Below, one piece after another: positions 1-44,009 of a stretch of DNA of 64,000 bases. Position 1 is the stretch's first letter. Each line of letters starts with the position of its first letter. The stretch covers positions 1 through 64,000 of IMG/VR virus record IMGVR_UViG_3300045738_002140. One strand, written 5' to 3'. The position numbers were made by a program, and so were the translations under genes. This DNA is from a virus. The notes beneath the pieces are model-generated. The model saw nothing but the letters and a program-made list of their open reading frames with translations, searched no databases and was not told the DNA's origin.

Positions 1-72
1 GAGCCCGAAAAAGTCGAGGAGCCCGAGAAAGTCGAGGAGCCCGAGAAAGTCGAGGAGCCCGAAGGGGTAGAG
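1..72 (+). repeat. 18-bp tandem repeat coding for EPEKVE
   Basis: Four consecutive 18-bp units are seen. The first three differ only at single A/G third positions and the fourth is degenerate (EPEGVE). The unit length is a multiple of three, so changes in copy number keep the frame. The array may continue left of the window. Confidence 0.85.
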
Positions 73-43120: not shown

Positions 43121-43540
43121 CTAAAGAATGGAAACACTAAATGTTTTTAGTATGTATTCTGCTGATAATTTATTAATGTCTTCCTCTTCTATCTCTAGTA
43201 TTTTAAAATTATTTAATTCAAGCCACTCTCTTTTTTGGCAGTCTCTTTTAATTGAGTTAAGGTAGTTTGACGCAGAGTTTTTGTGGAAAAATTTATTGAA
43301 TTCACTGTGTTGTCTTCCTTGTACCTCGACGGCAATTTTTTTAGTTGCGTTTAGTATATCGACCTTCATCAACGTCCCGTACACAGGGAATTCTTCATAT
43401 ACAATTTGGTTTTTCCAGTAGGTTTTTAGGAATTGCTTAACTTTGAATTGTATTTTAGATCTGGATTTTTTGTTCCAGTCTATTAAAAACCTTGAAACAT
43501 TCCTGCTTCGTAGTTTTCCTTTTATGTCATACAGCCTCAT
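43121..43540 (-). CDS. Small PD-(D/E)XK-like endonuclease (probable)
   Basis: The 139-residue basic protein has the core of a Vsr/DUF559-type nuclease: VDILNATKKIAVEVQGRQH supplies the Asp and the Glu-Val-Gln of a PD-(D/E)XK site at about 64-82. It is followed by RDCQKREWLELNNFKILEI, the usual R...K..WL...G/F.VL.I helix-strand end. It may be a homing or repair endonuclease. It lies directly after the tmRNA on the same strand, starting six bases beyond the CCA end, a typical position for mobile endonuclease genes, though the tmRNA appears intact. Confidence 0.6.
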   Translation of the reverse strand: MRLYDIKGKLRSRNVSRFLIDWNKKSRSKIQFKVKQFLKTYWKNQIVYEEFPVYGTLMKVDILNATKKIAVEVQGRQHSEFNKFFHKNSASNYLNSIKRDCQKREWLELNNFKILEIEEEDINKLSAEYILKTFSVSIL

Positions 43541-43545
43541 TAAAT

Positions 43546-43974
43546 TGGTGGAAGCGGCGGGAGTCGAACCCGCGTCTTTAAAGCCATCGGCTCAAATGTA
43601 CTACAAGCTTAGTCGGTGTTAATGCTCGCTTGGCGTGTCACCGACAAACGGCCTACGCGAGGTTGTAAGGGATGTATAAATTTTATACTGGGCTCCCTTA
43701 CGTGCTCCAGTTTTTTGCTCGCTATCGACGCCCTAGCTCCTTAACGAGCATCCAGAGTAGGACGGGGTAGGTTATTCTACCAGCAAGAGGGCTTCATCCT
43801 CTACAAAACCGAACTTGGCGAGAATCTCGTCAGCTTCGGCTAGTGAAGGGGCCATCTCCATGTCAACATTAGTGTTGGCATTTATGTTTTTTTGATAGAT
43901 GTTTTTAAGAGGCCAACCATCATCCTCTGCTTGCAATTTGGCGTAAGGTTCTAAATCGAATCCAGTACGCTCCC
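43546..43974 (-). ncRNA. ssrA: tmRNA (ssrA) with an unusually long tag frame
   Basis: The 5' end GGGAGCG at 43974 pairs with CGCTTCC before ACCA at 43546, forming the alanine tRNA-like acceptor stem with one G-U pair. CTGGATTCGA follows the 5' end and GACGCGGGTTCGACTCCCGC precedes the 3' acceptor, both as in E. coli ssrA. GGTTGGCCTC.TAAAAA, AATAACCT and AAGCTTGTAGTAC are further ssrA landmarks. The CCA is encoded. The resume codon is probably GCC at 43879-43877, with the conserved A four bases before it. The tag frame then runs 35 codons (starts ANTNVDMEMA, ends EDEALLLVE) to TAA at 43772. E. coli has 10 codons ending ALAA. A consensus promoter stands directly upstream. Confidence 0.93.
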
Positions 43975-43981
43975 GTATATT

Positions 43982-44009
43982 ATTATACACAATTATTTAT
44001 TTTCGTCAA
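43982..44009 (-). promoter_or_regulatory. ssrA: Sigma70 promoter of the tmRNA
   Basis: TTGACG, 16 bases, perfect TATAAT, then seven bases to the first G of the tmRNA. The RNA 5' end is fixed by the acceptor stem, so this promoter calibrates the -10 to +1 distance used by similar promoters in the window. Confidence 0.8.

What the first reader, a model, noticed from the sequence alone, without database searches (positions are those of the whole stretch)
43772..43879. Phage tmRNA whose tag frame is 35 codons and ends LLLVE, not a LAA-type degron
The tmRNA is well supported at both ends and has the conserved A four bases before the predicted resume codon GCC. From there the tag reads ANTNVDMEMA ... 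EDEALLLVE, 35 codons. Tags in bacteria usually have about 10-15 codons and end in small hydrophobic residues (ALAA) read by ClpXP. Aligning AATAACCT with E. coli shows the first of two tandem TAA stops replaced by GAA, adding a final Glu. The phage RNA could rescue ribosomes without sending products to host proteases, or the tag may carry its own function.
Basis: partly seen in the sequence, partly recalled or inferred. Interest (0 to 1): 0.85.

Follow-up and report, generated by a model that had tools for sequence, protein, structure and literature searches.

The report
Phage tmRNAs with conserved long tag
This virus of bacteria carries its own ribosome-rescue RNA, and it belongs to a large, apparently virus-only family whose protein tag holds a conserved helix-like stretch between the usual tag start and end, which suggests that phages have added a new recognition signal to a standard bacterial quality-control tag.

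Summary
Window 43974-43546 (minus) is a one-piece tmRNA (Rfam RF00023, 134 bits). Its tag frame is 35 codons, ANTNVDMEMAPSLAEADEILAKFGFVEDEALLLVE, then TAA. The Glu end is a rare variant (this phage and one other IMG/VR contig); 43 of 54 distinct family tags end in Ala-Ala.

The larger finding is the family. About 84 viral contigs carry tmRNAs with 28-35-residue tags sharing a 16-residue module, APS[LV]xEADx[IV]LAx[FY]G[FYW]. In distant members the flanking RNA is no more alike than shuffled sequence, yet the module stays 62-88% identical in protein, with mostly synonymous changes, so the peptide is under selection. No tmRNA with the module was found in 84,980 bacterial and archaeal genomes (motif scan) or in sequenced phages.

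Most likely it is a composite degron: an ordinary tag start, an inserted docking helix, and a variable tail ending in Ala-Ala for ClpXP. In this phage the Ala-Ala half is lost, so the module must act through another protease, or the tag is not degraded. Host and partner are unknown.

The parts
43546..43974 (-). one-piece tmRNA gene (ssrA), 429 nt, CCA encoded
   Evidence: RF00023 134.3 bits, model 1-374; 34 relatives aligned end to end
43982..44009 (-). promoter-like site TTGACG-16-TATAAT, 7 nt before the mature 5' end
   Evidence: 11 of 12 consensus matches; similar sites in 25 of 67 relatives against 9% of shuffled upstreams
43968..43974 (-). acceptor stem, 5' strand GGGAGCG (third base pairs G-U, the alanine identity pair)
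   Evidence: G3-U kept 34/34; fourth pair A-U/G-C/C-G covaries
43550..43556 (-). acceptor stem, 3' strand CGCTTCC
   Evidence: as above
43894..43927 (-). pseudoknot 1 (GAGG/CCTC and GATGG/CTATC)
   Evidence: Rfam alignment; second stem covaries; first stem changes to GGAG/CTCC in L073 and L108
43775..43879 (-). tag reading frame, 35 codons, resume codon GCC at 43879-43877
   Evidence: translation; same resume site in relatives
43805..43852 (-). conserved 16-residue module APSLAEADEILAKFGF
   Evidence: 54 distinct tags; protein-level selection; predicted helix 13-22 of the tag
43775..43780 (-). last two tag codons GTA GAA (Val-Glu), in the place of Ala-Ala in relatives
   Evidence: alignment A1; shared only with L007
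43772..43774 (-). tag stop codon TAA
   Evidence: sequence; aligned with the stop of relatives
43729..43764 (-). pseudoknot 2 stem region after the tag, highly conserved
   Evidence: columns 217-252 of A1 paired in nearly all sequences

Best explanation
It is a functional one-piece tmRNA carried by an uncultivated tailed phage and used with the host's SmpB and ribosomes. It belongs to a family of viral tmRNAs whose tag is a composite: a normal start (AN/AD...), a conserved 16-residue module predicted to form a capped helix with a hydrophobic face (Ser-x-x-Glu at its start, Phe-Gly-aromatic at its end), and a variable acidic tail that usually ends in Ala-Ala. Shown: RNA structure, frame, family, selection on the peptide, no module-bearing tmRNA found in cellular genomes. 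Inferred: the module is a docking helix for a host or phage protein (protease adaptor, unfoldase or other quality-control factor), which adds a second recognition signal to the ClpXP-type end, so that proteins tagged during infection are handled in a way that suits the phage. In this phage the Ala-Ala half has decayed to Val-Glu, so recognition would rest on the module, or degradation is weakened.
For: Rfam 134 bits. Acceptor and T-stem covariation, G3-U pair kept 34/34. 54 distinct tags of 28-35 residues share the module. Every further hit of an 11-residue motif scan of IMG/VR proved to be a tag: 9 new stretches, 7 of them above Rfam's cut-off and the other 2 cut by a stretch end. In distant members flanks are at shuffled identity (about 0.5) while module protein identity is 62-88%, with far fewer amino-acid changes than neutral simulation in most pairs. 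43 of 54 distinct tags keep Ala-Ala although the tail before it varies in length and sequence; the terminal Ala-Ala is the main ClpXP determinant (PMC7652416). Tag profile: 12/12 viral records at 47-67 bits, no tmRNA in 793 bacterial genomes. AlphaFold2: helix 13-22, turn, helix 28-34, mean pLDDT 78.
Against: No partner, host or expression data. The module matches no Pfam or PHROG family, no PDB sequence and no fold, so docking is inference. This phage's own tag lacks the Ala-Ala end. No clpX was found in the 11 records tested; a ClpP-like protein occurs in 5, not in this one, and may be a capsid protease.
Confidence: 0.55

Rival explanations
1. Non-degradative tag: the phage RNA frees ribosomes but its products are spared, or are carried to a phage-useful place by the module.
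For: The window and L007 end VE; L088, L098, L104, L283, L286 and L287 end LV; AV ends occur too. Ala-Ala is the main ClpXP determinant.
Against: 43 of 54 distinct tags keep Ala-Ala after a freely varying tail, which suggests that the degron end is selected in most of the family.
Confidence: 0.2
2. Protease switch: the long tag is read by another protease, such as Lon, through its internal residues, as in Mesoplasma florum.
For: M. florum has a long tag with an internal recognition region read by its own Lon (PMC9097571). A conserved internal module with a decaying end fits.
Against: The M. florum tag quoted there (AANKNEENTNEVPTFMLNAGQANYAFA) does not contain the module, by inspection; most family tags keep Ala-Ala; hosts are unknown.
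Confidence: 0.17
3. The conserved stretch reflects RNA structure, not the peptide; the true tag is short or absent.
For: RNAalifold pairs PK1's 5' strand with the ATT CTC codons of the tag (columns 50-55 with 154-159), and Ile ATT and Leu CTC codons are strongly preferred.
Against: That pairing competes with PK1 and is broken in two members; module third positions vary (entropy 1.15 against 0.26 and 0.39 at positions 1 and 2), pN/pS 0.26; serine switches between TCN and AGY codons; other frames are mostly closed.
Confidence: 0.05
4. Relic or decoy: a host tmRNA captured by the phage, now drifting or acting only as an SmpB sponge (as proposed for the DS6A fragment).
For: A shortened phage form that inhibits tmRNA is known (PMC4131195; PMC11915505).
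Against: All domains are present and covary, the frame is open in all members, the peptide is selected, and the window has an 11/12 promoter.
Confidence: 0.03

Closest known systems
Standard one-piece bacterial tmRNA (Rfam RF00023; E. coli ssrA, tag ANDENYALAA)
   Same: tRNA-like domain with G3-U pair and CCA, PK1, A at -4, resume GCC, stop, further pseudoknots; most relatives end Ala-Ala
   Different: tag 28-35 residues instead of about 10, with a conserved internal module; this member ends Val-Glu
Mesoplasma/Mycoplasma long tags read by Lon (M. florum, about 27 residues)
   Same: long tag with an internal recognition region
   Different: no module, not viral; the protease for this family is unknown
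Known phage tmRNAs (Bxz1 group, Wildcat, Bacillus phage G, DS6A fragment; Melnitz two-piece tmRNA)
   Same: ssrA carried by a phage, normally without smpB
   Different: no record in the INPHARED collection matched the module tag at meaningful E-value (best E 3); Melnitz is two-piece and SAR11-like
Carsonella tmRNA tag ending in lysine
   Different: decaying endosymbiont tmRNA; here the charged residue is acidic and the rest of the RNA is intact

Membership tests
tmRNA (RF00023) | covariance-model match over the whole model | tested here: met
   134.3 bits, positions 1-374, gathering score 47
tmRNA (RF00023) | alanine-type acceptor stem with G3-U pair and CCA end | tested here: met
   GU 34/34, CCA encoded in all 34, neighbouring pairs covary
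tmRNA (RF00023) | PK1, A at -4 and resume codon opening a tag frame ended by a stop | tested here: met
   rule from PMC2481249
tmRNA (RF00023) | SmpB partner | tested here: inconclusive
   no smpB in the 114 kb record nor in 25 of 26 other records; host SmpB presumed
tmRNA (RF00023) | charging with alanine, ribosome rescue and tagging | not testable with these tools
   needs biochemistry or mass spectrometry
ClpXP ssrA degron | C-terminal Ala-Ala carboxylate | tested here: not met
   window ends Val-Glu; met in 43 of 54 distinct family tags
Proposed viral module-tag tmRNA family | module APS[LV]xEADx[IV]LAx[FY]G[FYW] in the tag frame of a tmRNA | tested here: met
Proposed viral module-tag tmRNA family | absence of module-bearing tmRNAs from cellular genomes | tested here: met
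   motif scan of genome contigs: 23 hits, none a tmRNA; profile negative in 793 genomes with 12/12 positive viral controls; divergent cellular forms could be missed
Mollicute Lon-read long tags | M. florum tag sequence and Lon recognition | tested here: not met
   the quoted tag lacks the module by inspection; Lon recognition not testable here

The most novel reading that the evidence does not exclude
Many unrelated phages share a virus-specific docking helix built into the tmRNA tag, which redirects the products of ribosome rescue to a particular host or phage protein instead of, or besides, ClpXP: a viral takeover of the trans-translation output. The Val-Glu variant would be a form that relies wholly on the helix.
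Probability: 0.4. Interest if true: 0.85.

Novelty: new variant of a known kind. Interest (0 to 1): 0.62.

Why it matters
tmRNA tags are usually seen as short, exchangeable degrons, and the tag template can be altered with little effect on tmRNA activity (PMC2481249). A tag module conserved as protein in phages that share few or no other detected genes means that something reads it. It makes a simple question testable: why phages bring their own tmRNA at all. The latest tmRNA database holds only 79 phage sequences, from RefSeq viruses (PMC11915505), and ARAGORN either misses these genes or starts many of the long tags too late, which may explain why the family seems not to have been described.

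Tried and rejected
Lost tandem stop as the origin of the Glu: rejected by alignment. Sequencing error: unlikely, the same end occurs in L007. Independent small protein started at ATG before the module: rejected by inspection, since the residue before APS is Met, Phe or Leu in different members and the upstream frame is closed in many. Module borrowed from a phage protein: six-frame profile search of all held viral loci found it only in tmRNAs. Similarity to a UBA-like or ribosomal bL12 helix, suspected by eye: no support from Pfam, PDB profile or Foldseek. Isolated-phage relatives: none in INPHARED. Host from sequence: not resolved; heptose-type nucleotidyltransferase genes hint at a Gram-negative host.

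Full report
What is there. The window is the first 64 kb of a 114,176-base IMG/VR virus record. On the minus strand, 43974-43546 is a complete one-piece tmRNA (RF00023, 134 bits), which ARAGORN misses. PK1 ends 14 nt before the resume codon GCC (43879), with A at -4, and the tag frame runs 35 codons to TAA. A promoter-like site TTGACG-16-TATAAT ends 7 nt before the mature 5' end. The phage has lambda-type tail genes, DnaB, a DnaE-type polymerase and RecA. It has no smpB.

The family. A scan of IMG/VR for the conserved tRNA-like 3' part, blind to the tag, already returned many tmRNAs with similar long tags. A scan for the tag motif gave 72 stretches. None lay in an ordinary protein gene; most have tmRNA features on one or both sides. 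Twelve of the most distant, checked with Rfam, are tmRNAs at 77-150 bits. A looser 11-residue motif gave 81 stretches, and the nine new ones are tags too: seven above Rfam's cut-off, two cut by a stretch end. L076 and L090 are cut by a stretch end, and L119 and L123 are below Rfam's cut-off, so these were not verified as whole tmRNAs. With the window, L040 and L130 the family stands at about 84 contigs; 54 distinct tags of 28-35 residues were fully read. By contrast 36 bacterial tags sampled here are 9-18 residues long, and the most frequent length is 10 (PMC11915505). Lengths of 8-35 are on record (PMC8012679), so length alone is not the novelty.

Virus-specific, as far as tested. The motif in 84,980 bacterial and archaeal genomes gave 23 hits, none in a tmRNA. 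A profile of the tags found nothing in 398 Pseudomonadota and only three weak hits (at most 23 bits) in long frames of 395 Bacteroidota, while it found 12 of 12 viral records at 47-67 bits. INPHARED gave no real match. A divergent cellular form could still have escaped, and hosts are unknown.

Selection acts on the peptide. Against the window, members such as L092, L084, L088, L080 and L112 have flanks at the identity of shuffled sequence (0.48-0.54) but modules 69-88% identical as protein. Substitutions are mostly synonymous: L092 has 18 nucleotide but 3 amino-acid differences, against 10.4 expected without constraint, never reached in 5000 simulations. Serine is kept through TCN/AGY switches. 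In the set found without reference to the tag, pS is 0.47 and pN 0.12, and other frames are mostly closed. Several distant members share no detected gene with this phage in the stretches held.

The end. In alignment A1 the window's GTA GAA TAA occupies the columns of Ala-Ala-stop in relatives, so the Glu is a substitution of the last Ala (GCA to GAA), not a read-through of a former stop. Ends across 54 distinct tags: AA 43, AV 4, VE 2, LV 2, VA, IA and TA 1 each. VE occurs only in the window and L007, whose tmRNAs are 97-99% alike in the parts compared while the nearest RecA gene is about 71% alike: either strong conservation or exchange of the tmRNA as a cassette.

How it may work. Shown: a complete, covarying tmRNA with a conserved frame. 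Established knowledge: such an RNA, with SmpB, frees stalled ribosomes and tags the product; Ala-Ala at the end is the main signal for ClpXP (PMC7652416). Inferred: the module is a docking helix. It has a Ser-x-x-Glu cap, hydrophobic positions 4, 10, 11, 14 and 16, and Gly at the end; AlphaFold2 gives a helix over tag residues 13-22 and a second over 28-34, at moderate confidence. Because the tail between module and end varies but the end stays Ala-Ala in most members, I read the usual tag as a composite degron. For this phage the Ala-Ala signal is lost and the outcome is open.

Conclusion. The finding is sound, its explanation of the end is wrong, and the real interest is a previously unremarked family (in the papers searched) of viral tmRNAs with a conserved tag module.

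Noticed in passing
alignment A1 columns 269-375 (window about 43714-43612): The PK3/PK4 part comes as discrete alleles exchanged between family members: rank correlation of pairwise identity between the 5' part and PK3/4 is 0.12, e.g. L002 and L032 are 98% alike in the 5' part but 45% in PK3/4. Mosaic tmRNAs by recombination.
   Followed up: partly
window 43121-43540 (minus): A reading frame with homing/HNH-endonuclease similarity starts within 6 nt of the tmRNA 3' end; its homologue is found in many relatives, possibly linked to movement of the tmRNA.
   Followed up: partly
window 43858-43881 (minus): An inverted repeat (GCCAACA..TGTTGAC) could form a hairpin over the resume codon; pairs in this place are kept in most relatives.
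   Followed up: no
L129, L138, L150, L152, L153, L141, L198, L192, L014: Other viral tmRNAs have different long tags, e.g. AKTAKYKGHISARASLVEMTASVA, GNTFAKMATLGLTREASVVAA and GNNDSSLGSIQDLKYALANNLLAKQVEELVAA: further possible tag families.
   Followed up: no
L012, L015, L018, L024, L032: ARAGORN starts the 35-codon tags too late (at EADEIL...), so annotated long phage tags may often be truncated.
   Followed up: yes
L282:677-886 and L288:4644-4853: A group I intron lies directly after the Rfam-called tmRNA end in two family members.
   Followed up: no
L074, L112, L123: Pistol ribozymes lie within about 1.5 kb of the tag or tmRNA; L092, L112 and L119 also have abiF-RNA-like hits.
   Followed up: no
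records behind L007, L018, L024, L073, L079: A ClpP-family protein of about 250 residues is encoded; it may be a capsid protease, but a link to the tag was not tested.
   Followed up: no
L192 (record G026, 270,756 bases): A large phage with a different long tag carries its own smpB (E 9e-52).
   Followed up: no
window 1-72: Tandem 18-nt repeat encoding EPEKVE units.
   Followed up: no
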